From Deltaproteobacteria bacterium (GTDB taxonomy: Bacteria > Myxococcota_A > Polyangia > HGW-17 > SLPX01), in assembly GCA_021162935.1 (NCBI GenBank), contig JAGGXR010000037.1:1-46988 (forward strand): a stretch of 46,988 nt of DNA, in the 5' to 3' direction. Both the position numbers and the translations under genes were made by a program. A model generated the notes under the pieces. That model saw only the letters and a list, made by a program, of their open reading frames with translations, searched no databases and was not told the origin of the DNA. Shown here one piece after another: positions 24,046 through 43,015 of this stretch (the stretch's first letter is position 1; each line of letters begins with the position of its first letter).

Positions 24046-24816
24046 ATGGAGCGATCACGATTGCTGGACCTGCTCCAGCAAGTACAACAAGGAACCCTTT
24101 CGCCCGACCAAGCGGCCGAACACCTCTCAGACCTTCCCTATGAGGATCTCGGCTACGCCACGGTGGACCATCACCGCCAGCTTCGCCACGGCTTCCCCGA
24201 GGTCGTGTTCGGCCAGGGCAAGACGGTGGACCAAATCGTGGGCATCGTCTCGGCCCTTCGCAAGCACGGAGGCAACATCCTGGTCACAAGACTCGACGAG
24301 GACAAGGCCAAGGCCGTCCAACGTCAAGTTCCCGACCTGACCTGGCATTCGATGGCCCGATGTCTGACCTTCGAACAAAAGGAATGGCAGGATCTTGGCC
24401 GAGGCCCCATCGCCGTGGTCTGCGCGGGAACGAGCGACCTGCCGGTCGCCAAAGAAGCCGAACGGACCGCCCACCTCATGGGCAATCGGGTCGAACTCGT
24501 CGCGGACGTGGGCGTGGCCGGCATCCATCGGCTCCTGGACAAGAAGCGACTGCTCGAATCCTCGACGGTCTTGGTCGTCGTGGCGGGCATGGAAGGCGCG
24601 CTTCCCAGTGTCGTGGGTGGACTCGTATCCAGGCCCATCATCGCCGTTCCCACCAGCGTGGGCTACGGAGCGAACCTAGCGGGCGTCACGACCCTACTCG
24701 CCATGCTCAACTCCTGTGCCGCCGGGGTCAGCGTGGTCAATATCGACAATGGATTCGGCGGCGGCTATGCCGCATCCCTGATCAACCGGAAACTGCCAGA
24801 GGATGGCCAGCCGTGA
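24046..24816 (+). CDS. larB: LarB, nicotinate-adenine dinucleotide carboxylase/hydrolase
   Basis: LarB (256 residues) carries out the first step of nickel-pincer nucleotide cofactor synthesis: carboxylation of the pyridinium ring of nicotinic acid adenine dinucleotide and phosphoanhydride hydrolysis. The N-terminal helical region (LLQQVQQGTLSPDQAAEHL) leads into the PurE-like core with VVCAGTSDLPVAKEAERTA, VADVGVAGIHRLL and VVAGMEGALPSVVGGLV, followed by PTSVGYGANLAGVTTLLAML. It is followed by larC after 73 bp on the same strand. LarE and the LarA-type racemase are not in the window. Confidence 0.93.
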   Translation: MERSRLLDLLQQVQQGTLSPDQAAEHLSDLPYEDLGYATVDHHRQLRHGFPEVVFGQGKTVDQIVGIVSALRKHGGNILVTRLDEDKAKAVQRQVPDLTWHSMARCLTFEQKEWQDLGRGPIAVVCAGTSDLPVAKEAERTAHLMGNRVELVADVGVAGIHRLLDKKRLLESSTVLVVVAGMEGALPSVVGGLVSRPIIAVPTSVGYGANLAGVTTLLAMLNSCAAGVSVVNIDNGFGGGYAASLINRKLPEDGQP

Positions 24817-24889
24817 AGAACACAGACGCCATCATCGATGAATCCCACGGCCTGAAGCGCAACGATTCCCCAACGCATGGATATGTGAA

Positions 24890-26305
24890 ATGAACGAGCA
24901 ACCACAAAGACCAAACGATACAGGCAGGCCCAGGCACCTCCACTTCGACTGTTCGTCGGGAGTGGCGGGAGACATGCTCATGGCGAGCCTGCTGGATCTC
25001 GGTGCTGATCAGGAACAGATCCATCGCACCCTGCTGGCCGTCGGCGTTCCAGAGCCCTGTCTGACCGTCTCCACCGTTCGTCGTGGCGGCATGCGCGGAC
25101 TGCACGTCCAAATTCCTGACGCGGATCCCGACGACGTGCCGAACCAAGTGACTTACGTGGACCTCCGGGCTCGCCTCCAGACGGCCGACCTGCCGGAACA
25201 CGTCCGCCAACGAGCACTCAGCGTCCTGTCCCGACTGGCAAAGGCCGAGGCCCATGTCCACGGCATCGGCGAGGCGCTCGTCCATTTCCACGAACTGGGC
25301 GCCATCGACACCATCGCCGACATCGTGGGCGTCTGCACGGCCATCGACCTACTCAACGCCGACCAGTTTTCTGCATCACCGGTGGCAGTCGGCGCGGGGA
25401 CCATTCGCATCGCCCATGGGCAGGTTCCGGTTCCTGCGCCCGCAACCCTGGAACTCCTCAAGGGCGTTCCCATCTACCCGGGAGTGCCACAGCAACATAA
25501 CCGCCCGTCCGGTCCTCAGACGCCGTCCAACCACATGGAACCGAACCGAGAACGCGACGGCATTCGTAACGACCCCTCGGGGCTGGAACTGGCAACCCCG
25601 ACCGGAGCAGCCCTGCTCACCGAATTCTGCAACCAATTTGGAACCATGCCCGCCATGGAGGTCGCCTCGATTGGATACGGCGCAGGCACCAGAGAACTCC
25701 CATCACGCCCCAATCTCCTGCGCGCCGTCCTGGGGCACCTCGACGATCAACCAACCAGACCACGGCGATTGGCGTCTGGAGTAAGCAACGCGTCTCCAAT
25801 GGACGCCGGCTCTGCGTCCAACACCAAGGCTGAACCGACGCCCCTCGCACCCGATTTCCTGAACCACCTCGTCGAGGTCCACGCCAACCTGGACGACCTC
25901 GCCCCGGAACTCGTCGCCAACCTCACCACACGACTCTTCGAAGTCGGCTGTCTCGACGTGTGGACCCTGTCGGCCCAGATGAAGAAAGGCCGGCCGGGCC
26001 AGGTGGTCTGCGCCCTGCTCCGCCCTGGCGACCTGGATGCAGTCACGTCCCTGTTTTGGTCCGAATCCACGACCCTCGGTCTGCGGTGGCACCAGGTCGA
26101 ACGCGCTCGACTGGAGCGACGAACCGGCACGGTCGAGACCCCCTGGGGCACCGTGGCGATCATGGTAGCCATCAATCAAGACCGCTTCGTGCGCGCCACC
26201 CCCGAATTCGACTCCTGCAGGCAGGCAGCACGACAGGCCCACGTGGCCGTCCAGGCCGTGTATCGAGCAGCCCTGGCCGCATGCGAAGCCGTCAAGGACT
26301 GCTGA
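24890..26305 (+). CDS. larC: LarC, nickel insertion protein of pincer cofactor synthesis
   Basis: A 471-residue LarC, which inserts nickel into pyridinium bis-thiocarboxylate mononucleotide. N-terminal marks are HFDCSSGVAGDMLMASLLDL and VHFHELGAIDTIADIVG. The C-terminal catalytic half has LVEVHANLDDLAPELVANL. It is one uninterrupted frame, unlike the Lactobacillus gene that needs a programmed frameshift. A Pro-rich, variable insert sits near residues 200-215. It is downstream of larB and probably in the same operon. The client Ni-pincer enzyme must be elsewhere on the genome. It ends 17 bp from the convergent kinase gene. Confidence 0.92.
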   Translation: MNEQPQRPNDTGRPRHLHFDCSSGVAGDMLMASLLDLGADQEQIHRTLLAVGVPEPCLTVSTVRRGGMRGLHVQIPDADPDDVPNQVTYVDLRARLQTADLPEHVRQRALSVLSRLAKAEAHVHGIGEALVHFHELGAIDTIADIVGVCTAIDLLNADQFSASPVAVGAGTIRIAHGQVPVPAPATLELLKGVPIYPGVPQQHNRPSGPQTPSNHMEPNRERDGIRNDPSGLELATPTGAALLTEFCNQFGTMPAMEVASIGYGAGTRELPSRPNLLRAVLGHLDDQPTRPRRLASGVSNASPMDAGSASNTKAEPTPLAPDFLNHLVEVHANLDDLAPELVANLTTRLFEVGCLDVWTLSAQMKKGRPGQVVCALLRPGDLDAVTSLFWSESTTLGLRWHQVERARLERRTGTVETPWGTVAIMVAINQDRFVRATPEFDSCRQAARQAHVAVQAVYRAALAACEAVKDC

Positions 26306-29034: not shown

Positions 29035-29898
29035 TCAGTTCCGTGGAGCCAACATGGCCAGAACGCGACGGACCACCTCCTCGACGATGCCCGACAGGTC
29101 ATCGCTCGATAGGTCGTCGCCCGATAGGTCGTCGCCCGATAGGTCATCGCCCGATAGGTCGTCGCCCGACAGGTCCTTGCCCGACAGGCTCTCGGACGAC
29201 AGCCTCCCACCCGACGGTTCCCCGTCCGTGCGGCAGGCGAGCACTTTCCCCGTCAGGCCGTAGGTCTGTCTGGCCCGATCCAGCTTGTCGAGCTGTGCCG
29301 CGCCAAGCGGCGCCCTGCTCCCCAACAGGCTCGTGTTCAGTGCAATCTGAGCGCTGTGCTCCAGGGTCTCCATTTTGAAGTAGGCTTCTTCGATGCTCGC
29401 CCCGATGGTCAACGCTCCATGGTTCGCAAGAAGCACCACGTCGGTGCGACGAATGAGTTCGGCAATGCTCGCCGCGACCTCCGGTGTACCGGGTGTGGCA
29501 TAGGGCGCCACGGGAACGCCCCCCAAAAAGAGCGCTGCTTCGGCCAGCAGACATTCATCCATGGGAATGCCGGCGGCAGCAAAGGAGGTCGCCGCCTTGG
29601 GATGAGCGTGGACCACGGCCCCTGCGTCGCTTCGGTTGCGGTACACTTCCAAGTGCATTCCCAGTTCACTCGTGGGCCGAGACCGACCGGAGGACAGGAC
29701 GTGGCCGTCCAGGTCCGTCACCACGAGATCCGCCTCGGACAAAAAACCCTTGCTCGACCCGGTGGGCGTGCTCAATATTCGGTCACCGGCCAGTCGAATG
29801 GAAATATTCCCGTCGTTCGCCGCCACGAGTCCACGCAGCCACATACGTCGGCCCACCTCCACGATGGCCTTTCTCGGTTCCAGACGATTGAGCATCAT
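29035..29898 (-). CDS. Class II aldolase with C-terminal encapsulation peptide
   Basis: A class II aldolase of the fuculose-/rhamnulose-1-phosphate type, 287 residues. The N-terminal 215 residues hold NDGNISIRL, PTGSSKGFL, catalytic Glu78 in SELGMHLEVYR, Zn-ligand His97/His99 in VVHAHPKAA, and His160 in LLANHGALTIG. It could cleave 6-deoxy-ketose-1-P to lactaldehyde plus DHAP, or run in reverse. The C-terminus adds eight tandem five-residue units (SGDDL-like, about 231-270), then a helix IVEEVVRRVLAMLAPRN that looks like a BMC encapsulation peptide. Similar aldolases belong to BMC loci of the PVM and SPU types. The start is ATG 29898 or ATG 29895; ribosome site weak. It is the first BMC enzyme after the EGF lipoprotein gene. 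Confidence 0.88.
   Translation of the reverse strand: MMLNRLEPRKAIVEVGRRMWLRGLVAANDGNISIRLAGDRILSTPTGSSKGFLSEADLVVTDLDGHVLSSGRSRPTSELGMHLEVYRNRSDAGAVVHAHPKAATSFAAAGIPMDECLLAEAALFLGGVPVAPYATPGTPEVAASIAELIRRTDVVLLANHGALTIGASIEEAYFKMETLEHSAQIALNTSLLGSRAPLGAAQLDKLDRARQTYGLTGKVLACRTDGEPSGGRLSSESLSGKDLSGDDLSGDDLSGDDLSGDDLSSDDLSGIVEEVVRRVLAMLAPRN
29105..29186 (-). repeat. 15-bp tandem repeats encoding the aldolase linker
   Basis: Repeats of a 15-bp unit (plus-strand form TCGCCCGATAGGTCG and close variants) at about 29105-29186 encode the repeated SGDDL units of the aldolase linker. Neighbouring copies are near-identical, which points to recent slippage expansion inside the gene. Confidence 0.8.
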
Positions 29899-29931: not shown

Positions 29932-31137
29932 CTAGTTGTCTTCTCCAGTGATGCTGCGCAGGTCGCCGTAGCCCGTGATCACATCCACAATCCTCTGGCC
30001 GAAGAAGGGAGCCACTCGACTCGCAAACTCGGACCCTGGATGGGAGTCACCGCCACCGGCAGAATTTCCATCGAGCAGATAGAGCCCGCCCTCGGTCTCG
30101 AGTGCACGAAAATCCCACACGTAGATGTTGTCGTCCGGTTCGTCCCAGGTGTTGATCACCCACTCGAAAAAGTCTTTGGCTCTGTTGGCCTCGTCCTGAT
30201 TCGTCGCGCTTTCCACCAATGCGGCCCCTGTCCACACGATGAACCTCGTGTTCGAAAACGTGCGGAGCTTCTCCCGCAGCGCCATATACTGCAGCTTATA
30301 GTTCTCCTCCGACTTCCGCTCCGAGGAAATGTCGGGGTTCCCCGTGTCGGCCTGCACCGAACTGACAGGAAAACAGTGCTTGAACACGACCACTTTATAG
30401 CTCGAAGCGAGTTCGTCGATGGTCTCCAGTCCTTCGCTTGTCGCCTGACCTCCGTCTTGGACCCACAGATGCCAGTAGTCATAGGGATAATTCGCCCACG
30501 GATACGGATTGTCGGGATAGGCCTCCTCGGTGACATCATACGAAGTGGAGTGATCCTGGTTGTACTGGGTAAACCAGTCGGCCACGCCACCACCCCAGAT
30601 GACCCCACCGGTGGAATGATGCAGGAAAATCACTTTCGTATCCGGCCCGAAATCCGGCTTGGGCTGAGGGTCGCCTGTCTTCTCGCAGCGATCGCCCGTG
30701 TAGCCTTCGAGGCATTGGCACTGGAAGCCGTTGACCCCATCGATGCAGGTGCCGCCGTTTTCACAGGGATTCGGCGTGCAGTCGTCGATGTTCGTCTCAC
30801 AGGTATCTCCTGAAAAACCCGCAGCGCAGGTACAGGTGAACTGGTCACCATCTACGGCGCAGGTACCGCCATTTTTGCAAGGATTCGGATTGCACGGCCC
30901 GGCCTGGTTGTTGTTGGCGTTGGTGTTGTCGTTGGTGTTGTCGTTTGAGTTGTTGTTGATATTTTGGTTGTTCCCACCGCCGCCCGAATCATCGCCACAT
31001 GCAGTTCCAAACGCCGCCATCGCAAAGAGCACGGCGGCCAGGGCCGCCAAACGGGCTACTGCCAGGCACCCCTGCCGTACAAGATTTGGATTCGTCATTT
31101 GTTGGGTCGACCAGCGCTGTTCAAAATGTTTCACCAT
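29932..31137 (-). CDS. EGF-domain lipoprotein with SGNH-like domain
   Basis: A 401-residue lipoprotein. ATG 31137 has GGAGG 8 bases upstream. The signal (AVARLAALAAVLFAMAAFGTAC) ends in an acceptable lipobox. A low-complexity Asn/Asp stretch follows, then two EGF-like modules: CNPNPCKNGGTC...CTCAAGFSGDTC and CTPNPCENGGTC...CQCLEGYTGDRC. The C-terminal domain opens with VIFLHHSTGGVIWGGG and has WHLWVQDGGQ and a final GGGDSHPGSEFA, a pattern reminiscent of SGNH/GDSL hydrolases; catalysis is not proved. It is a surface protein placed between two blocks of BMC enzyme genes, which is unexpected. Confidence 0.82.
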   Translation of the reverse strand: MVKHFEQRWSTQQMTNPNLVRQGCLAVARLAALAAVLFAMAAFGTACGDDSGGGGNNQNINNNSNDNTNDNTNANNNQAGPCNPNPCKNGGTCAVDGDQFTCTCAAGFSGDTCETNIDDCTPNPCENGGTCIDGVNGFQCQCLEGYTGDRCEKTGDPQPKPDFGPDTKVIFLHHSTGGVIWGGGVADWFTQYNQDHSTSYDVTEEAYPDNPYPWANYPYDYWHLWVQDGGQATSEGLETIDELASSYKVVVFKHCFPVSSVQADTGNPDISSERKSEENYKLQYMALREKLRTFSNTRFIVWTGAALVESATNQDEANRAKDFFEWVINTWDEPDDNIYVWDFRALETEGGLYLLDGNSAGGGDSHPGSEFASRVAPFFGQRIVDVITGYGDLRSITGEDN

Positions 31138-31751
31138 GGCAATTCCCTCCGAAAGCAGATTTCTGTAATCAATGAAAGCGTACCATGACTCTGGATCAAT
31201 TCCCACCTCGTTGACGATTTCTACCTCGTTGAGCTTCGGCTCCTCGGACTGGCGTCGCCTAGTGGGGACGGGATCGGTCATTCATCTCCGCCGAGACTTG
31301 GGGCTGGGACTTGGCCTCCCTCGGACGGCTTGTGAGAACGCGTCCAGGAGGGCGCGTTCGGCTGCGCCTCGACAAAGCTGCCTTCATCGGGCCAAACGAA
31401 GTGAGGTGGATGGCCGAGAGAGGGACATGCGTCGTTTGACGTATCCGTAAGCGTTTAGGCGCGGCCCGAAGCGGCGCTTTGACGCCTCGGTCGTGCCAAG
31501 GCTCCCCGCCTGTTTCGTCTCGGCTTCGATGAATGAAATCGTGGTGCTGCTGCCATCGCCTCGCGATGGCAGTCTAGGGGGGCGTAGGCGATGGCAGTCT
31601 ACCTGTGGGGCGGAGGCGATGGAAGTCTAGGGGATGGAGCGTAGGCGATGGCAGTCTAAGGGATGGAGCGTAGACGATGGAACGTCTAAGGGATGGGGCG
31701 GAGGCGATGGCAGTCTCGAAAGGAAGCGGGTGAGGAAAAAAGAAAAGAGGA
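31138..31751. other. Gap between the EGF lipoprotein and the DeoC fusion
   Basis: 614 bp without a gene I can support. The left part (31138-31545) likely holds the promoter for the lipoprotein-aldolase-Ntn-kinase unit, but no clear -35/-10 pair is visible to me. The right part holds a hairpin at 31550-31572 and the 29-bp repeats at 31563-31715. Confidence 0.6.
31550..31715. repeat. Six-copy ~29-bp tandem repeat starting with a perfect hairpin
   Basis: A unit beginning GCGATGGCAGTCTA recurs at 31563, 31588, 31616, 31645, 31674 and 31704 (periods 25, 28, 29, 29 and 30 bp). The first copy is preceded by its exact inverse, giving a stem of 10 bp (CTGCCATCGC / GCGATGGCAG) with a 3-base loop. No U-tract follows, so it is not a classical terminator, but it sits just behind the DeoC gene and may end or stabilise the BMC transcript. 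Confidence 0.85.
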
Positions 31752-33668
31752 TCAGTAGGAGCCAGGACCAGCGTCCTCGCCCTTGGTGATGGCAACCGAA
31801 GCCGAAGCGCCGATACGGGTGGCGCCTGCGGCGACCATGGCACGCGCCGTTTCGATGTCTCGAATGCCACCTGAGGCCTTGACGCCCATATCCGGGCCCA
31901 CGGTCTGACGCATCAGGGCGATGTCATCCACAGTGGCGCCCCCGGGGCCAAACCCAGTGGAGGTTTTGACGAAATTGGCGCCGCCCAGCTTGGCGAGCAG
32001 ACAACCCTTGACCTTCTCCTCCTTGGACAGAAGCGCTGTCTCCAAAATGACCTTGACCAGGGCCTGACCACGAGCCGCGTTGACCACAGCCTCGATGTCG
32101 CGCCGCACCAGTTCGTCATCTCCCGACTTGAGGGCGCCCACGTTGATCACCATGTCGATCTCTTCGGCGCCGTTCGCAATGGCGTCCCTGGTTTCGATCG
32201 CCTTGGTGGTGGGCGTGGTGGCACCCAGCGGGAACCCGATGACCGTGCAGACCTTGACGATGCTGCCCTTGAGTTCACGCGCAGCCAAGGGGACCCAACT
32301 CGGGTTGATGCAGACCGACGCAAAACCGTACTGCCGCGCCTCCTGGCAGAGCTTGCGGATGTCCGCGTCAGTGGTTTCCGGCTTGAGCATCGTATGATCG
32401 ATGTACCGAGCGATGGACTTGTCCATGACCTTGGTCCCCAGGCTGGATGCAATCCGATCGGCCCCGCCGTTGAACAGGGCGGCCACGGCGGGTTCGTTCT
32501 TCTCGGCGCATTGTCCACATCCAGTACACTTGTCCGGGTCGCCCTCGCATGGCCCAGTCGCAAAGGGAACTGGCTGGTAGCCGAGTTTCTGCGCGGCGGC
32601 AGCCAGAGCCGGCGACTCAGAGTCAGTTGTGCTGGCGCCATTGGACGCGGCCGATGCAGTCGCAGAAACTCTTGAAAGCGACGACTGGGCATTGGAGACC
32701 GCCGGAACAGAACGTGATGGAGTCGCGCTATTTCCCACGTTCGATCCCACACCGGTCACCTGAGCCGCGACCTGTTCGATGGCAACCATGCGAACGCCGA
32801 GCTCCTGGAGGTCGGACACCATGGCATCCACCCGCCGCCGAAATCCTGCTGGCGCCTCTGGATAGTCGGCCCGAAGCCCATACATGGAATCAGTGGCAGC
32901 CACTACCAGTTTACCCCGCATCAAAGCATAGATGGGCATGAGCGATGCTGCGCTGTCCCCATCGAGATGGGCGATTTTCGAAGCGGTGCTGAGCGTCAGA
33001 TTCGGCAGCACGACCGCATCGGCCGCCTCGACTAGGTCGCGCAGCCCGAAGGTGACCTCGGCAGGCAGCACATTCGCCGAAGGACAAACCCTCCGAATGG
33101 CGGGCTGGTCCAAAACCTTGCGCGCCGAAGGCGACAGGAACAGGTCCATGGCAGCATCGGTCTGAGCAAGAGACCCGAGCATGGCGAATACCTGGTCCAG
33201 CTTGCCATCACCCGCGGTCAGAACCACCAAAACCCTGGGGCCCGCACCAGAACCACCCCGAGCGACGTCCGAGCCACCTGCCACATGGGCCGCTGCCCCC
33301 GGTCTGCCAGCCGACCCAATGGTCACGGCTTCGATGGAGCCATCCGTTCGACCAACCGTGTAGGGCACCCGGTACCCAGCCCCACCGCCGAGGCGTGGAC
33401 GCGTGCCAAGTCCGGTGCCGAGACCAGTGCCAAGTCCGGTACCGAGACCAGTGCCCAGGCCCGTCCCAAGGGCCGTGCCTGCGGCAGCCGACGATTCATT
33501 CGTTCCCGTTCCAGCCGGCCGGCCAGACAGGGTCACGCCGGTCTCTTCAACGCGCAACCGCTGGCCACGACCTGCTCCACCTTCAGGGCCCAAACGATCG
33601 ATCGCCCCGCCACCAAGGCGATCCATGACCTGATCAACGATCTGCTGCACAAGCTTGTCCGTATCCAT
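31752..33668 (-). CDS. deoC: Encapsulated flavoprotein-like / deoxyribose-phosphate aldolase fusion
   Basis: A 638-residue fusion. Residues 1-20 are an encapsulation-peptide-like helix ([16 protein letters not shown]). Residues 66-89 are a GTGL tandem-repeat linker. Residues 144-305 form an HFCD/flavoprotein-like domain ([15 protein letters not shown] ... [16 protein letters not shown]). A low-complexity spacer follows, then four Cys (374, 381, 384, 387; pattern C-x6-C-x2-C-x2-C) that could hold an iron-sulfur cluster. The class I DERA domain runs from 418 to 638: [10 protein letters not shown], Asp505 in EIDMVIN, Schiff-base Lys568 in FVKTSTGF, Lys597 in VKASGGIR and a C-terminal Tyr638. DERA cleaves deoxyribose-5-P to acetaldehyde plus glyceraldehyde-3-P. 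GGAGG lies 6 bases before ATG 33668. It is the last gene of the main BMC unit. Confidence 0.92.
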
Positions 33669-33710: not shown

Positions 33711-33995
33711 TCAACCGTCGAGTCGTACCGCTTTGCCACGGACCTCGTCCACGAACCCCACGATACTCAAATCCACCGGAACCAGTGGGCCAAGCGGAAT
33801 GGCCGCTTCTTTCTTTCCCGTCAGAAACACGAAGTCGCCCACGCCGGCGCACCCCACCACGTCCGCAGCGACCGCAGGCCTACCCAACTCGTGGCCCTGC
33901 TCGTCGAGAAGCTGTACGACCATCAGCTTGATGCCGGTCAGGCTCTCGACCTTGACCGTCGCGACTATCTGTCCAACCACTTTGCCAAGCTGCAT
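33711..33995 (-). CDS. BMC-P pentameric vertex protein
   Basis: A 94-residue EutN/CcmL-family vertex protein: MQLGKVVGQIVATVKVESL, KLMVVQLL, ADVVGCAGVGDFVFL and a closing VGFVDEV. Pentamers cap the vertices of the BMC shell. Its ATG overlaps the stop of the rpiB-like gene by one base (TGATG), with GGAGA upstream. It is one of three BMC-P genes here. Confidence 0.95.
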   Translation of the reverse strand: MQLGKVVGQIVATVKVESLTGIKLMVVQLLDEQGHELGRPAVAADVVGCAGVGDFVFLTGKKEAAIPLGPLVPVDLSIVGFVDEVRGKAVRLDG

Positions 33996-34495
33996 CAGCT
34001 TCTCCGCTGGTTCGAACCCACCACCACACCGTCTCCGGTCACCTCGTGGATCTTGGCCACCCGGCGCGCATGCCGCCCACCGGCGAAGTCGGTCTGCAGA
34101 AACTCGTCCACAATCCGTTCGGCCAGCCCCGTGCCCAGCATGCGCCCACCCAAGGTGAGCATGTTCGCATCATTGTGCTCACGCGCCGAATGGGCGGAAA
34201 ATTCATTCCAACAAGGCGCCGACCGGATCCCCGGCACCCGATTCGCCACCATCGAGGAGGCCACGCCCACCGCATCGATCATGATGCCGCGCACGAGGCG
34301 GCCGGCCGCCAAGGCCTCGGCCACGGCACGTGCGACGAGAAAGGCCACGTCGGGATAGTCCACGGCATCCGTGCTGTGGGTGCCGAAATCCTTGACCTCG
34401 TAGTCCTTATTCGAAAGGTACCCAACCAGATGCTCCTTGAGGGGAAACCCGCCGTGATCCGACCCGATGTACACGAGAAATCGCCGATCACTCAC
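33995..34495 (-). CDS. rpiB: RpiB-like sugar-phosphate isomerase with altered active site
   Basis: A 166-residue protein of the RpiB/LacAB family, whose members isomerise aldose and ketose phosphates. It keeps GSDHGGFPLKE, DYPD, the His of SAREHNDANML and GGRHARRV. The segment that carries the catalytic Cys in E. coli RpiB (ICGTGVG) reads IDAVGVA here, so Asp74 stands where Cys66 would be and the GTG turn is lost. Some RpiB use another acid elsewhere, so activity cannot be excluded. GTG 34495 overlaps the TPI stop, with AAGGAGG 6 bases before. The placement between TPI and BMC-P suggests a role with the shell cargo; the substrate is unknown. Confidence 0.88.
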   Translation of the reverse strand: MSDRRFLVYIGSDHGGFPLKEHLVGYLSNKDYEVKDFGTHSTDAVDYPDVAFLVARAVAEALAAGRLVRGIMIDAVGVASSMVANRVPGIRSAPCWNEFSAHSAREHNDANMLTLGGRMLGTGLAERIVDEFLQTDFAGGRHARRVAKIHEVTGDGVVVGSNQRRS

Positions 34496-35397
34496 GACCC
34501 ACCTCCTTGCGCCGACAGGTTCTGTGCCCGGGCCGCGCCCGCCTCCACGATGGCAGCGAAACGCTTGGGGCTCAAACTGGCGCCACCCACGAGCAGGCCG
34601 CCGACCTGGTCGATGGCCAGGATATCCGCGGCGCTCTCTTCGGTCACGCTCCCACCGTACAGCACGCGCAACCTCGACGCCCAGGCGGCCCCGAACTCTT
34701 CGCCCGCTACCGTTCGAATGAAGGCGCAGGCCTCGTCGATCTGAGCCGGCTCAGCCACGCGCCCCGTGCCGATGGCCCACACGGGCTCATAGGCAATGGC
34801 CATGCGACCGGGTGTCACGCCCCGCAGGGCCAACCCAGCCAGGGCCGTCTGGACCTGGACCCGGAGCACCCGAAACGTAGAGCCGTTCGTTCGGTCGTCG
34901 AGGCCTTCGCCCACGCACAGGACGGCAGACAGGCCACTTGCCACGGCGCGATGAAGCTTTGCCTTGACCTGGTCGTGGGTCTCACCGGCGGCACGTCGCT
35001 CCGAATGGCCCACCAGGGTCCAGGTGGCGCCGGCTGCCAAAACCAGATCTGCGGAGACCTCGCCCGTATGAGCACCCGACGGCTCCCAATGCAGATCCTG
35101 GCTGCCCACCTCCGTCGAGGCGCCAGCGCCCGCCAGGGCAGACCGCACCGACGAAATGAGCGTGGCAGGCGGAAACACCAGCGTGTCCACCCCGGTCTGC
35201 GGGGCCAAGGCAAGATGCGACGCAAACTCGACCAAGGCCTCGCCCGCACCGCCACCAGGCGCGTTCATCTTCCAGTTGCCGGCCACGAGCAACGCAGGCT
35301 GCCACTCGTCACGGCTGCGGTCCGGCGTCTGGCCGAGCCGATCCGCCACGCGGCGCAGCACCACGTTCACAAGCTGATCCAGTTCCAGCTCCGCCAT
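34492..35397 (-). CDS. tpiA: Triosephosphate isomerase with N-terminal encapsulation peptide
   Basis: TPI interconverts glyceraldehyde-3-P and DHAP. The catalytic core is complete: NWKM (Asn41, Lys43), His131 in LVGHSERR, Glu204 in YEPVWAIGTG and YGGSV. Typical TPI is about 250 residues; this one has 301, with an added N-terminus that starts MAELELDQLVNVVLRRVADR, an amphipathic helix like the encapsulation peptides of the neighbouring ALDH and DeoC. ATG 35397 is preceded by GGATGGAG; the frame further upstream is discarded. It overlaps rpiB by 4 bases. It is most simply read as a BMC cargo enzyme that equilibrates the triose phosphates of the two aldolases. Confidence 0.93.
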   Translation of the reverse strand: MAELELDQLVNVVLRRVADRLGQTPDRSRDEWQPALLVAGNWKMNAPGGGAGEALVEFASHLALAPQTGVDTLVFPPATLISSVRSALAGAGASTEVGSQDLHWEPSGAHTGEVSADLVLAAGATWTLVGHSERRAAGETHDQVKAKLHRAVASGLSAVLCVGEGLDDRTNGSTFRVLRVQVQTALAGLALRGVTPGRMAIAYEPVWAIGTGRVAEPAQIDEACAFIRTVAGEEFGAAWASRLRVLYGGSVTEESAADILAIDQVGGLLVGGASLSPKRFAAIVEAGAARAQNLSAQGGGS

Positions 35398-36496: not shown

Positions 36497-37078
36497 TTAC
36501 AAAATTTTATCCAAAATCTGAGGATGCGGCGACGGTATCACCGTGGTGCCAAGAATCAACGCCTCATCCGCCAGAGCCTTGACACCCGCCTCCACCGCGG
36601 CCCGAACCGCCGCCACGTGCCCGGTCAGCATAACGAACGCCTTGCCCGCAAGGCCACGGCCGAGCCGTACCTCGATGAGTCGAACATCGGCGGTCTTGAC
36701 CGCCTCGTCAGCGGCGCGCACCGCCGATGCCATGGTGAAGGTCTCGATCACACCCAGGGCCTCGATCGTTTCCACGTCCACCATGCCCCCCAACGCGGGA
36801 ATCACGTCTGGGTGCACCGACGGGATGACCGTAAAATCGGTCATGGTCTCGCCGGCAACGGCGACACCAACCTCCACCGCGGTACGGACCGCGGCCACGA
36901 GTCCAGTGGCCATGACCAAAAACTTTCCCGGACAGGTGGGCATGGCAGTTTCGATCCGCACATCAGACGTCTTGGCCATCACGTCGGCCACCTCGACGCC
37001 CCGGGCCACGCTTCGGGTCTCCACGTACCCGACCGCGAGCACTCCGTCCGATTCATGCCACTGCGCCTGGGCGCTCAT
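36497..37078 (-). CDS. PduT-type tandem-domain BMC-T shell protein
   Basis: A tandem BMC protein of 193 residues with two BMC folds: one from about 11-95 (VGYVETRSVARGVEVADVM ... HPDVIP), one from about 105-190 (ALGVIETFTMASAVRAADEA ... HPQILDKIL). The first has Cys49 in MPTCPGKFLVM, matching the CPGKF motif of PduT whose three Cys in a trimer bind a 4Fe-4S cluster in the pore. The start is ATG 37078 with AGGAGG upstream; the open frame further upstream is not coding. It lies 22 bp after pduS, the likely electron-transfer partner. Confidence 0.94.
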   Translation of the reverse strand: MSAQAQWHESDGVLAVGYVETRSVARGVEVADVMAKTSDVRIETAMPTCPGKFLVMATGLVAAVRTAVEVGVAVAGETMTDFTVIPSVHPDVIPALGGMVDVETIEALGVIETFTMASAVRAADEAVKTADVRLIEVRLGRGLAGKAFVMLTGHVAAVRAAVEAGVKALADEALILGTTVIPSPHPQILDKIL

Positions 37079-37100
37079 GCCGCTCCTCCTGCCCGACGGA

Positions 37101-38489
37101 TCATGCCGCCCCTCCTGCCCTGTGGATCTCGATGAATCCACTCTCGATACGCTCGATACGACCAGTGATGCTCGCGTGCAGGGCCGCGCTGATCCGCCCC
37201 GTGGGTTCGGCCAGCACCTGGCCGACGCGTACCTGCTGGCCTTCTTCCACCACGACTTTGGGCGCCGCGCCCGATCCCTGGCGGATCGCAATCCGGACCA
37301 CACCGGGGTCCAGCCGACCCACGAGTTCCAGGTGGGCCACCAGATCGGACAGCCCCAGCCTGGCGGTCAGCCTGGGCACGGGCACCTGCTTGATGCGCCA
37401 GTAGGACGACGGCGTCGATTCCGTTTTGGGCTGAAACACGAAACCGGATTCGCGAAGACGCCGCTTCACCTCGATGTTCATGCCCCGAGGGTCCAAGCCC
37501 ATGGGACAGCCGTATTCGGTGCAGAGCCCACACTCACAACAGAGCATGGCCCCCGCATAGGCTTCCACGTCTCCGGTCAGACCCGATGCCATGCCCCGCA
37601 TGAGCCGATCGGGAAAGATACGATGGCCCAATAGATTCCTCGGGCAGACCTCGGTGCACTCGCCGCATGCACAGCAGGCAGCCCGGGCGAGATGGAGCGC
37701 TGACAGAGGATCCACGCGCCGCGCCCGCACCACGTGATGGTCGTCGGGTAGCACGAGCAGACCCGAGGTCGTCTTCGAGACCGAATCGCCTGGACCGGCC
37801 AGCCGCCCCATCATGGGGCCACCCGTGACCAAGGCGGGCCGTTCCAGGTCCGTTCCTCCTGCGGCTGTCACCACATCCGACAACCTCGTACCCACGGGCA
37901 CCTGGTAAATGCCTGGGCTCCGAACGAAACCGGTCACCGTGACGAATCGATCCGTGGAGGGGCGCGCCGACCGGACCGCCGCGCTCACCGCCGCAAGACT
38001 CGCCACGTTGCTCACCACGACGTCCTGAGACAGGGGGAGCGCCGTCTCGGAAATGGTGCGACCGAGCACCTGCTGCACGAGGGTAAACTCGTCTCCTGCG
38101 GGGTACACATTCGGAAGGCGCGCCACGGAGAGACGCGTCCCGGACGGGTCCGCCCGATGGATCGCGGCCTCGGCGCTGGCGACCACGTCCGGGTAGGCTG
38201 CCTTGACGCCCAAATAGCCACGTCCGGCGCCAGTGGCTTCCATGGCGAGAACGAGGCCGTCTACCACCTCGTCCGCATGGCGGAGGACGAGCGCCTTGTC
38301 GGACCACAACAGGGGCTCACATTCGGCACCGTTCGCAATCACTGAATCCACCTGGGCGTCGAGTTTGACGTGGGTGGGAAACCCGCCCCCGCCCATGCCC
38401 ACGATGCCGGCAGCAGACACCGCAGCGCGAATCGACTCGGCCGAAGTCGCCTTGGAAATCGTGGTCTGTGTTGCGGACGCTGTGGTCAC
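37101..38489 (-). CDS. pduS: PduS/RnfC-like electron-transfer protein
   Basis: A PduS-type flavin/Fe-S protein of about 462 residues (S. enterica PduS has about 450). The RnfC-like N-terminal dinucleotide/FMN region has GIVGMGGGGFPTHVKL, GAECEPLL and YPAGDEFTL. A SLBB-like middle part has VTVTGFVRSPGIYQVPVGTRL. Two ferredoxin-like motifs follow, CCACGECTEVCPRNL and CCECGLCTEYGCPMG. PduS oxidises NADH and passes electrons to acceptors, including the Fe-S pore of PduT. GTG 38489 has GGAG 9 bases upstream; GTG 38495 and TTG 38504 are also in frame. Confidence 0.92.
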   Translation of the reverse strand: MTTASATQTTISKATSAESIRAAVSAAGIVGMGGGGFPTHVKLDAQVDSVIANGAECEPLLWSDKALVLRHADEVVDGLVLAMEATGAGRGYLGVKAAYPDVVASAEAAIHRADPSGTRLSVARLPNVYPAGDEFTLVQQVLGRTISETALPLSQDVVVSNVASLAAVSAAVRSARPSTDRFVTVTGFVRSPGIYQVPVGTRLSDVVTAAGGTDLERPALVTGGPMMGRLAGPGDSVSKTTSGLLVLPDDHHVVRARRVDPLSALHLARAACCACGECTEVCPRNLLGHRIFPDRLMRGMASGLTGDVEAYAGAMLCCECGLCTEYGCPMGLDPRGMNIEVKRRLRESGFVFQPKTESTPSSYWRIKQVPVPRLTARLGLSDLVAHLELVGRLDPGVVRIAIRQGSGAAPKVVVEEGQQVRVGQVLAEPTGRISAALHASITGRIERIESGFIEIHRAGGAA

Positions 38490-38594
38490 TCTCACTTGCT
38501 CCAAAAAAATCCGTGTCTCTCGTCATGGGCGCATGATCGGCGTCCGACTGTCAGCGGACTGCCGGCCAACCGTCACACGACGGTCGCGCTGCCG

Positions 38595-40399: not shown

Positions 40400-40693
40400 T
40401 CACGACTTGGCAAAGGTGCGTCCCCCATCCATTTCCACGTAGTCCACGATGGCCATGACCGTGGCGTCCACGGGCAGATCTTTGGTTCTCTGGGTCAACC
40501 GTGCCGAAGACCCGGCCACGTAAAGGACCACCTCGCCCTCGCCGGCGCCAACCGCATCCACCGCAACCATCGGGTTGCCCGTCGATTCGAGGGTCCGCAT
40601 ATCCACCGGTTCGACGATGAGCAGCGTCAGGCCCACGAGTTTTTCGCTCTTCTGTGTGCTCACCACTGTCCCAACGACCCGAGCAAGCTGCAT
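40400..40693 (-). CDS. BMC-P pentameric vertex protein
   Basis: A 97-residue EutN/CcmL-type vertex protein: MQLARVVGTVVSTQKSEKL, LTLLIVEPVDM, AVGAGEGEVVLYVAGSSA and MAIVDYVEMDGG. The start is ATG 40693, with GGAGG upstream. The gene follows the flavoprotein-like gene by 24 bp. It is the first BMC-P gene to be transcribed in the locus. Confidence 0.95.
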   Translation of the reverse strand: MQLARVVGTVVSTQKSEKLVGLTLLIVEPVDMRTLESTGNPMVAVDAVGAGEGEVVLYVAGSSARLTQRTKDLPVDATVMAIVDYVEMDGGRTFAKS

Positions 40694-40717: not shown

Positions 40718-41671
40718 CTAACGGCCTGGTCGCAGCTCCACACCCAACTCCCTGGCGCGATCTCGTGCCAGGGGGGTCACCACTGTCTGGGGCGCAAGGG
40801 TCACCCTGAGGACCCCTGCCGCAAACACCTCATCGATGTCTTTTTCCGTCACCAAGCCGCCACGGGCTCGACTCGCCGAATCGGTCGTCGCCGCCAGCGT
40901 TGCCAGGGGCCGGACCACGTCATCGACGGCCACCGCCTCCAGGCCCAACAGCGCCAGATCCCGCCACAACGACTGGGCCCTGCGCTCCAACCCGCTCGCC
41001 CCGACCGTCTTGGCGCGGGCCGGCCGCCCATCGGCCGTCCGTCCGCCGTCCGTTCGCCCGTCACCGAGGCGCCCGTCGGGACCAACGGATCCCAATGCTA
41101 TCCGCTGCAAGCCTGGGAGGTCCTCATGGCCCAGCACAAGCACAGGCCTGGCGGCTGCAAGGCCTTCGAGCAACATTGCGGCAAAGGGATCCGAATCGTC
41201 CGCACCGGCCGCTTTCTTGGCCTGCTCCCAACCCAAGGTCCCCACGTAAAGCAGGTCCGCGTGCCCCACCGACTCCATGGCGGATTGCACTGAATCAGGC
41301 TGACTGCCTGGGTCCACGATCTGCACCGAGGCCTCCACGTTCGCCCCACGAAGCAGCCCTTCGACAGTGCCGGCCACCTCGGGACAAGACAGAATCGTTT
41401 GCTGCGCTCCAAACCGCGCCACCAAGGCCATGGCCCGCACCACAGAATCGAGCCTGCGCGCTGCCGTCCCCAAGAACCAGACCACTCTGGTCGGTTCGAG
41501 CGGGGCGTCCGATCCGTTCGGACCGCCCGAACCTCGGGCGGAACCAACCAAACCGGCGTTTCCCGTCGAAACAGAGGACGCCCCTGTCTGCCCCGCGAAG
41601 ACGCGGTTCAGAACCGTCTCCACGAGCACCGGAACCAATGCATCCAAGGTCTTGTCCTGCGAATCAGACAC
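40718..41671 (-). CDS. BMC-associated flavoprotein-like protein with encapsulation peptide
   Basis: A 317-residue protein. Residues 9-27 (TLDALVPVLVETVLNRVFAG) form an encapsulation-peptide-like helix. A Rossmann-like region (about 49-185) with VVWFLGTAARRLDSVV, LLYVGTLGW and ARPVLVLGHEDLP resembles the flavoprotein-like domain fused to DeoC in this locus. A low-complexity GRT/DGR stretch follows (about 196-220). The C-terminal part ends with VVTPLARDRARELGVEL, a helical motif that recurs in BMC-associated proteins. GTG 41671 has GAGG 5 bases upstream. Substrate and cofactor are not known; FMN binding is an inference from fold similarity. Confidence 0.78.
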   Translation of the reverse strand: MSDSQDKTLDALVPVLVETVLNRVFAGQTGASSVSTGNAGLVGSARGSGGPNGSDAPLEPTRVVWFLGTAARRLDSVVRAMALVARFGAQQTILSCPEVAGTVEGLLRGANVEASVQIVDPGSQPDSVQSAMESVGHADLLYVGTLGWEQAKKAAGADDSDPFAAMLLEGLAAARPVLVLGHEDLPGLQRIALGSVGPDGRLGDGRTDGGRTADGRPARAKTVGASGLERRAQSLWRDLALLGLEAVAVDDVVRPLATLAATTDSASRARGGLVTEKDIDEVFAAGVLRVTLAPQTVVTPLARDRARELGVELRPGR

Positions 41672-41765: not shown

Positions 41766-42452
41766 TCATCGAAACTGGACGCCCGACTGGGTGAAATCAC
41801 AGTAGGGCCGCTGCCCAGTGACTGTCACATCCTCCCGAATGGGGCAGGCTTCGTTCGCGCAGAGCCCGCAGATCGCCTCGACCACGTCCACCAAGTCGCC
41901 GTCACGCACTCCAGCAGCGTTGCCCTCGTCCAGATCCACGTGCATCTCCGTCCGAAAATCTGGACTCACCCGCACGATCACGTCTTCGAACATCACCTTG
42001 CGACCACTCACCGCTCGGGCAAGCACGCGCTGGCCATGCTGCAGACCGGTCACATCCGCATCCTTACTATGCAGATGAATGTGGCGCGCCGCGCAGATAA
42101 AGCCTTCGTCGATCTGGACGGCGCCCTTGGGTCCGATCAAGAAACCGCCTGGCGTGCCCACGGTGTTTCCAGACAGCCGAACCGGCAGGTTCACCCCGAT
42201 GACGAACCCGTCGGTGATGGAAAGCTCGGCCTGAGTCGCGTCGCGAGCCGGGCCCAGCACACGCACCCCGCGCAGCGATCCCTTTGGCCCCACCACCTCG
42301 ACCGTCTCCGTGCAGGCGAACTGGCCAGGCTGGGAAAGGTCGCGCCAGGGAGTCAGTCGATGTCCCGCCCCAAACAGCGCCTCGACGTGCTCCTGGCTCA
42401 GGTGCACATGTCTGGCAGAAAGAGCCACGGGGATCCGAAAGGGCTGCTCCAT
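41766..42452 (-). CDS. pduL: PduL-type phosphotransacylase
   Basis: PduL converts acyl-CoA plus phosphate to acyl-phosphate plus CoA, recycling CoA inside the compartment. Zinc-ligand motifs are visible: ALSARHVHLS, FICAARHIHLHSKDAD, and EMHVDLDEGNAAG. Other marks are TETVEVVGPKGSL, ITDGFVIG and GPKGAVQIDEGF. I choose ATG 42452 (MEQPFRIPVALSARHV), with GAGG 8 bases upstream, giving 228 residues. In-frame ATG 42485 is possible. The upstream part of the frame (from 42584) lacks a clear encapsulation-peptide helix, unlike the other cargo enzymes. It is the first gene of the main BMC unit. Confidence 0.95.
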   Translation of the reverse strand: MEQPFRIPVALSARHVHLSQEHVEALFGAGHRLTPWRDLSQPGQFACTETVEVVGPKGSLRGVRVLGPARDATQAELSITDGFVIGVNLPVRLSGNTVGTPGGFLIGPKGAVQIDEGFICAARHIHLHSKDADVTGLQHGQRVLARAVSGRKVMFEDVIVRVSPDFRTEMHVDLDEGNAAGVRDGDLVDVVEAICGLCANEACPIREDVTVTGQRPYCDFTQSGVQFR

Positions 42453-43015
42453 TCCTTCTACCTCGACCGAGTCATCATCTCGCATCCGACGCGCCGCCGA
42501 CGCTCTGTAGCGCGCCCAAGGTGCCGGCTGCGACCAAGCATACATGCCGCACACCTGGCCACATGGGCCCTCTACTTTGAACACAACGACTCTTTTCGGT
42601 CAAGGTCTCAGGCGTCACGGAGTGCGGCTCTTTTTCCCCGAGGCGTCCGACGTCATGCGACCAAACGTAGGGCTTGAATGTGAGTACTTGCCCGCTGGCA
42701 AATTCAGCTCTCCGTCCAGCGGACAAAGCCCCGCCACTTGCTGCCCACTTCCGTACCGACTTCGTCCCACAACTCCTTCCCCAAATATCGTCCCTATGTT
42801 TCGTGTTTCCCGGTTGCGCCGATATTTGCGGGCCACACCGTCCGCCCCGATCACTTTTGCAGGCTTCTCCATATACGCTTGCAGGTCCACGTATGCCTGC
42901 ACCAATTTCCGCAACAATGTACGCCTCCCTCTCTGGCAGATTAATTGCTCGGTCACTCTTGTCTACCGCATTGGAGGCTTCTTCTCTCCCCCCTTCCTTC
43001 TCCAACTCTGCGTCT
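42453..43015. other. Region upstream of pduL, with an IS remnant
   Basis: 563 bp between the glycoside hydrolase stop and pduL. It should contain the promoter of the BMC operon, but I see no convincing -35/-10 pair. A damaged ISKra4-type transposase fragment fills 42615-42956. Confidence 0.6.
42615..42956 (-). pseudogene. Remnant of an ISKra4-family transposase
   Basis: The 113-residue frame shows the central part of an ISKra4-type transposase: RRTLLRKLVQAYVDLQAY, IGADGVARKYRRNR, NIGTIFGEGVVGRSRYGSG, and CPLDGELNLPAGKYSHS. The family normally continues with several hundred residues that include the catalytic acids. Here the match is lost right after YSH and the frame ends, so both ends are missing or decayed. 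No terminal inverted repeats or target duplication are visible to me. The remnant marks an old insertion beside the BMC operon promoter. Confidence 0.7.

What the first reader, a model, noticed from the sequence alone, without database searches (positions are those of the whole stretch)
34492..35397. Triosephosphate isomerase with its own encapsulation peptide
TPI is normally a free cytosolic enzyme of about 250 residues. Here a 30-residue N-terminal extension starts with an amphipathic helix (ELDQLVNVVLRRVADRLG) that matches the style of the ALDH and DeoC encapsulation peptides. All catalytic residues are kept. It would let a closed compartment interconvert the triose phosphates made by DeoC (G3P) and the class II aldolase (DHAP).
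Basis: partly seen in the sequence, partly recalled or inferred. Interest (0 to 1): 0.75.

Follow-up and report, generated by a model that had tools for sequence, protein, structure and literature searches.

The report
Microcompartment-tagged second triosephosphate isomerase
This uncultured Myxococcota bacterium carries, besides its normal glycolytic triosephosphate isomerase, a second, ancient copy whose added N-terminal helix very probably loads it into a protein-shelled microcompartment that breaks down DNA-derived sugar phosphates.

Summary
On the minus strand, 34492-35397 encodes a 301-residue triosephosphate isomerase (TPI) with intact catalytic residues behind a roughly 34-residue extension: a predicted 18-residue helix (residues 3-20) and a disordered linker. 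It sits in a sugar-phosphate-utilization (SPU) microcompartment operon with DeoC, RpiB, CoA-acylating ALDH, PduL, PduS-like protein and shell genes. Thirteen Myxococcota genomes carry the same arrangement. All twelve with a readable N-terminus have the helix. On the TPI domain alone the thirteen form one supported clade, apart from the canonical TPIs, and share a G[SA]TFRVL signature found in no other TPI I examined. In the 318 genomes of the class, this TPI and the locus's unusual DeoC occur in the same 12. Most likely luminal TPI turns DeoC's G3P into DHAP, pulling an unfavourable cleavage forward and removing a reactive aldehyde. TIM in an SPU locus was reported in 2014; the tagged, dedicated clade appears undescribed. 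Encapsulation itself is inferred.

The parts
34492..35397 (-). triosephosphate isomerase, 301 aa, with N-terminal encapsulation-type extension
   Evidence: Pfam PF00121 E=2.3e-73 over residues 37-286; relatives in 13 BMC loci
35335..35397 (-). encapsulation-peptide-like helix of the TPI, MAELELDQLVNVVLRRVADRL (residues 1-21)
   Evidence: AlphaFold2 helix 3-20; profile score p=0.0006; conserved in relatives
35293..35334 (-). linker GQTPDRSRDEWQPA (residues 22-35)
   Evidence: low pLDDT, under 50 at residues 26-30; variable in length and sequence
33995..34495 (-). RpiB-type sugar-phosphate isomerase, overlapping the TPI stop (GTGA); no encapsulation peptide seen
   Evidence: PF02502 E=1.7e-51; GTGA overlap
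31752..33668 (-). DeoC aldolase with N-terminal encapsulation peptide, flavoprotein-like region and CxxCxxC motif
   Evidence: TIGR00126 E=8e-88, residues 419-628; weak PF02441 and Fer4
33711..33995 (-). BMC-P shell pentamer protein
   Evidence: PF03319
35621..35935 (-). BMC-P shell pentamer protein upstream of TPI
   Evidence: PF03319
36056..36352 (-). BMC-H shell protein
   Evidence: PF00936 E=3.8e-29
36497..37303 (-). BMC-T shell protein (two BMC domains; true start lies inside this ORF)
   Evidence: PF00936, 2 stretches
37101..38504 (-). PduS/RnfC-like flavin and Fe-S electron carrier
   Evidence: PF01512, PF10531, PF13534, PF13375
38595..40274 (-). CoA-acylating aldehyde dehydrogenase with N-terminal encapsulation peptide
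   Evidence: PF00171; NF011927 E=3.5e-191
40400..40693 (-). BMC-P shell pentamer protein
   Evidence: PF03319
40718..41671 (-). 317-aa protein of unknown family with an encapsulation-peptide-like N-terminus
   Evidence: no Pfam or NCBIfam match; homologues in most of these loci
41766..42584 (-). PduL phosphotransacylase
   Evidence: PF06130 E=6.3e-71
29035..29898 (-). class II aldolase-family protein with C-terminal encapsulation-peptide-like helix
   Evidence: PF00596 E=3.4e-53; tagged homologue only in L194

Best explanation
This is a dedicated microcompartment paralogue of triosephosphate isomerase. Its N-terminal helix is an encapsulation peptide that binds the shell or the other tagged enzymes and brings the enzyme into the lumen of an SPU-type metabolosome. 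There DeoC splits 2-deoxyribose 5-phosphate into acetaldehyde and glyceraldehyde 3-phosphate (G3P). ALDH and PduL drain the acetaldehyde to acetyl phosphate, while TPI drains G3P to DHAP. Because DeoC cleavage is unfavourable and TPI strongly favours DHAP, luminal TPI pulls the cleavage forward and removes a reactive aldehyde before it reaches ALDH or must leave; DHAP leaves through shell pores for glycolysis. Shown by sequence: fold, catalytic residues, operon, conserved helix, one clade, separate housekeeping tpiA. Inferred: encapsulation, luminal catalysis, direction of flux.
For: SPU operon content. Same gene order BMC-T/BMC-H/BMC-P/TPI/RpiB/BMC-P with DeoC in relatives. Helix present in all 12 readable relatives and not seen in the canonical TPIs examined. 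Profile match to sibling enzymes' peptides. Predicted 18-residue helix plus disordered linker, the textbook form of an encapsulation peptide (PMC12339742). One clade, support 99/94, on the TPI domain without the extension. Within the class, tagged TPI and the BMC-type DeoC occur in the same 12 of 318 genomes. Second tpiA in gap-pgk-tpiA-secG. Purifying selection on the helix in close pairs.
Against: No localisation data. Amphipathicity by itself is weak for single sequences. RpiB in the same operon has no tag, so not every operon enzyme needs one. HO-like loci L048/L049 have TPI beside an RpiB-DeoC fusion without any tag, so TPI linkage to DeoC does not require encapsulation. The thermodynamic argument rests on general knowledge, not on a computation here.
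Confidence: 0.7

Rival explanations
1. The tagged TPI is encapsulated, but its purpose is to link two aldolases: G3P from DeoC and DHAP from the tagged class II aldolase.
For: In the window and in L194 a class II aldolase with a C-terminal encapsulation-like helix lies at the same locus.
Against: Nine of the 13 genomes with tagged TPI have no match to this aldolase and two have untagged versions. The aldolase scores far below every NCBIfam cut-off, so a DHAP-forming reaction is not established.
Confidence: 0.1
2. The helix is a protein-protein docking or condensation element: it gathers TPI with DeoC and ALDH, possibly on the outer shell face or in a pre-organelle condensate, without luminal catalysis.
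For: Encapsulation peptides drive condensation of cargo in vitro (PMC12339742). The TPI helix resembles those of DeoC, ALDH and the 317-aa protein.
Against: The same class of helix directs cargo inside well-studied metabolosomes; no feature here points to the outer face.
Confidence: 0.12
3. The compartment runs in reverse: TPI supplies G3P from DHAP so that DeoC condenses it with acetaldehyde into deoxyribose 5-phosphate, an aldehyde-fixing use.
For: The aldol condensation is the favoured direction of DeoC (general knowledge), and TPI can supply G3P.
Against: ALDH, PduL and the PduS-like protein form the catabolic core that consumes acetaldehyde (PMC4207490); published readings of SPU loci are catabolic (PMC8217296).
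Confidence: 0.05
4. The extension is a neutral N-terminal tail or a mis-called start; the TPI is a spare cytosolic copy.
For: Internal GTG and TTG codons could serve as later starts.
Against: Helix conserved across divergent relatives and under purifying selection, profile match to sibling tags, strict linkage to the BMC locus, separate housekeeping tpiA.
Confidence: 0.03

Closest known systems
SPU (sugar phosphate utilization) metabolosomes (Axen 2014, PMC4207490; Sutter 2021, PMC8217296)
   Same: DeoC-type aldolase, RpiB, acylating ALDH, PduL, PduS-like protein and shell genes; one Atribacteria SPU locus was reported with a TIM, which helped give the type its name.
   Different: Neither main text mentions an encapsulation peptide on TIM or a dedicated TIM clade. 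Here the TIM is tagged and conserved in 13 genomes, and DeoC carries extra flavoprotein-like and cysteine-rich parts.
SPU-like loci of Latescibacteria (PMC4207490)
   Same: A class II aldolase in an SPU-like setting, as in this window.
   Different: There the class II aldolase replaces DeoC; here both are present. No tagged TPI was found in 64 genomes of the phylum of G347.
Encapsulation peptides of PduP and others (PMC12339742)
   Same: Terminal amphipathic helix of about 18 residues joined by a disordered linker.
   Different: Attached to a glycolytic isomerase that acts on the sugar-phosphate product rather than on the aldehyde arm.
Engineered TPI loading of Haliangium ochraceum shells (PMC11924220, PMC13185154)
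   Same: TPI inside a BMC shell.
   Different: There E. coli TPI is a non-native model cargo attached by SpyCatcher; here related bacteria appear to do this naturally with a peptide tag.
Canonical glycolytic TPI (PF00121)
   Same: Fold and catalytic residues.
   Different: Separate clade, N-terminal tag, G[SA]TFRVL signature.

Membership tests
Triosephosphate isomerase | PF00121 domain over the full length with catalytic Lys, His, Glu, loop 6 and YGGS | tested here: met
Triosephosphate isomerase | Isomerase activity | not testable with these tools
   needs enzyme assay
BMC encapsulation peptide | Terminal helix of about 18 residues | tested here: met
   AlphaFold2 helix 3-20, pLDDT about 67-76
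BMC encapsulation peptide | Amphipathic hydrophobic face | tested here: inconclusive
   hydrophobic moment 0.49, p=0.14 alone; pattern matches sibling peptides, p=0.0006
BMC encapsulation peptide | Poorly conserved disordered linker to the cargo domain | tested here: met
   low pLDDT at residues 26-30 and variable linker
BMC encapsulation peptide | Directs cargo into a shell | not testable with these tools
   needs fusion and co-purification
SPU metabolosome | DeoC-type aldolase (PF01791) and RpiB (PF02502) in the locus | tested here: met
SPU metabolosome | BMC shell genes with acylating ALDH and PduL | tested here: met
SPU metabolosome | Assignment to a published SPU subtype (1-7) or to HO | not tested
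   subtype models not available here
PVM-type fucose/rhamnose compartment | Class II aldolase as signature enzyme | tested here: inconclusive
   a tagged class II aldolase is present but DeoC and RpiB are the constant enzymes and the aldolase's substrate is unassigned

The most novel reading that the evidence does not exclude
Myxococcota have a dedicated, ancient, shell-targeted lineage of triosephosphate isomerase that works inside DeoC-type microcompartments as a thermodynamic pull on aldol cleavage: a natural example of a glycolytic enzyme duplicated and permanently moved into a bacterial organelle, and a native cargo tag for SPU/HO-like shells.
Probability: 0.6. Interest if true: 0.65.

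Novelty: new variant of a known kind. Interest (0 to 1): 0.52.

Why it matters
It turns a one-line 2014 remark (a TIM in one SPU locus) into a testable cargo assignment: a glycolytic enzyme with a conserved targeting tag, its own clade and a strict genomic link to the organelle. It suggests that SPU compartments process the sugar-phosphate half of the products as well as the aldehyde half. Engineers already load TPI artificially into Haliangium shells, for which native encapsulation peptides are stated to be unknown (PMC11924220); the peptides here are natural candidates from the same phylum.

Tried and rejected
Plus-strand reading of the coordinates: not a TPI. Hydrophobic moment as sole proof of an encapsulation peptide: not significant per sequence, replaced by a profile test. 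Tagged-TPI clade members outside Myxococcota: none in 64 genomes of the phylum of G347, 199 of G344, 297 of G351 or 390 of G348; two searches used strict thresholds, so an independent tag on another TPI would be missed. Second places matching the class II aldolase's tail (L223, L224) are low-complexity repeats, not tagged proteins. Atribacteria, source of the published SPU TIM, could not be reached. Search for a report of a tagged TPI: none found in the open-access library.

Full report
WHAT IS THERE. The stated interval holds a minus-strand gene, ATG at 35397 and stop at 34492, 301 residues. Residues 37-286 are a TIM domain (PF00121, E=2.3e-73) and the nearest solved structures are ordinary TPIs. 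N41, K43, H131, E133, C161, E204, the AIGTG loop and YGGS are retained, and nearly all of these are invariant in the alignments. Ahead of the domain lie about 34 residues, MAELELDQLVNVVLRRVADRLGQTPDRSRDEWQPA. AlphaFold2 gives helix 3-20, a low-confidence linker and a confident barrel (mean pLDDT 88).

SURROUNDINGS. The operon reads PduL, a 317-aa tagged protein, BMC-P, ALDH, PduS/RnfC-like, BMC-T, BMC-H, BMC-P, TPI, RpiB, BMC-P, DeoC, with a class II aldolase further on. TPI and RpiB overlap by GTGA. DeoC plus RpiB in a BMC locus is the published definition of SPU metabolosomes (PMC8217296). Axen et al. named the type partly from a TIM in one Atribacteria locus (PMC4207490).

THE REFUTING SCENARIO FAILS. 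The genome has a second TPI at G000:C134:30855-31598, in gap-pgk-tpiA-secG. The BMC copy is therefore not the only tpiA.

RELATIVES. Searches of relatives and of the whole class and of a genome collection gave 13 genomes with this TPI: the window, L037-L047 and L054. All lie in the same shell-gene neighbourhood. Twelve N-termini are readable and all start with the helix; L042 (G033) is cut by its contig edge. The canonical TPIs examined begin near the TIM domain or show only unrelated upstream reading frame. G[SA]TFRVL occurs in all 13 and in none of the other TPIs examined. In a 237-genome draw from the phylum, the two tagged TPIs score 395 and 442 bits and everything else at most 308.

TREE. 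Built on the TIM domain only, the 13 form one group with support 99/94; the canonical paralogues of the same genomes group elsewhere. The tagged TPI is thus not a recent copy of the housekeeping gene.

CO-OCCURRENCE. The non-aldolase part of the locus's DeoC and the tagged TPI are found in exactly the same 12 of 318 genomes of the class. These are related genomes (eight of the window's order, four of one genus), so the count is not 12 independent events; L054 adds another lineage.

IS THE EXTENSION AN ENCAPSULATION PEPTIDE? The published form is a terminal amphipathic helix of about 18 residues on a poorly conserved disordered linker (PMC12339742). A profile made only from DeoC, ALDH, 317-aa-protein and class II aldolase peptides scores the window's TPI N-terminus at p=0.0006 and the other relatives at p=0.0002 to 0.026 against shuffles. 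Hydrophobic moment alone is not significant for the window. In close pairs the helix is under purifying selection. Entry into the lumen remains an inference.

WHAT IT DOES. The tagged aldolase is present only in the window and L194; nine of 13 genomes have no match to it, and the two other matches lack a tag. Its closest NCBIfam models are all far below cut-off. So the conserved pairing is TPI with DeoC. From general knowledge, DeoC cleavage is unfavourable and TPI favours DHAP; ALDH/PduL on one side and TPI on the other would pull the reaction and keep G3P from accumulating next to an aldehyde dehydrogenase. This is the preferred mechanism, not demonstrated here.

CONTRASTS. In HO-like loci L048 and L049 a TPI without a tag stands divergently beside an RpiB-DeoC fusion and shell genes. 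In an Elusimicrobia contig (L119) TPI, RpiB and DeoC are adjacent with no shell gene in the fetched stretch and no tag. This suggests a tpi-rpiB-deoC association that exists with and without encapsulation.

LIMITS. Most of the genomes are assemblies from metagenomes; searches outside Myxococcota were samples and some used strict thresholds. The open-access library lacks many subscription papers, and supplementary locus tables could not be read, so a tagged TIM may already be listed somewhere.

Noticed in passing
window 31752-33668 and homologues in L037-L049, L194: DeoC carries a conserved cysteine motif (such as CTACGLC) just before the aldolase domain, after a weakly flavoprotein-like region; in HO-like L048/L049 the same motif follows an RpiB domain. 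A possible Fe-S or redox part on a class I aldolase.
   Followed up: partly
window 29035-29898; L194:4273-5097: Class II aldolase-family proteins with C-terminal encapsulation-like helices; similar tails occur in BMC-linked homologues in L197 and L198.
   Followed up: partly
window 40718-41671: 317-aa protein with an encapsulation-like N-terminus and no family match, with homologues in most of the tagged-TPI loci.
   Followed up: no
L053:9534-10094 (G000:C86): A stand-alone BMC-H gene far from the main locus, next to genes without Pfam matches.
   Followed up: partly
L048 and L049: HO-like BMC loci with an untagged TPI divergent from an RpiB-DeoC fusion.
   Followed up: partly
L119:6668-8595: TPI-RpiB-DeoC gene run in an Elusimicrobia genome without tag or shell genes in the fetched stretch.
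   Followed up: no
window 24046-26305: LarB-like (AIR carboxylase family) and LarC-like (nickel insertion) genes side by side, suggesting a nickel-pincer cofactor pathway.
   Followed up: no
window 29932-31281: EGF-repeat, probably exported protein gene lying between DeoC and the class II aldolase.
   Followed up: no
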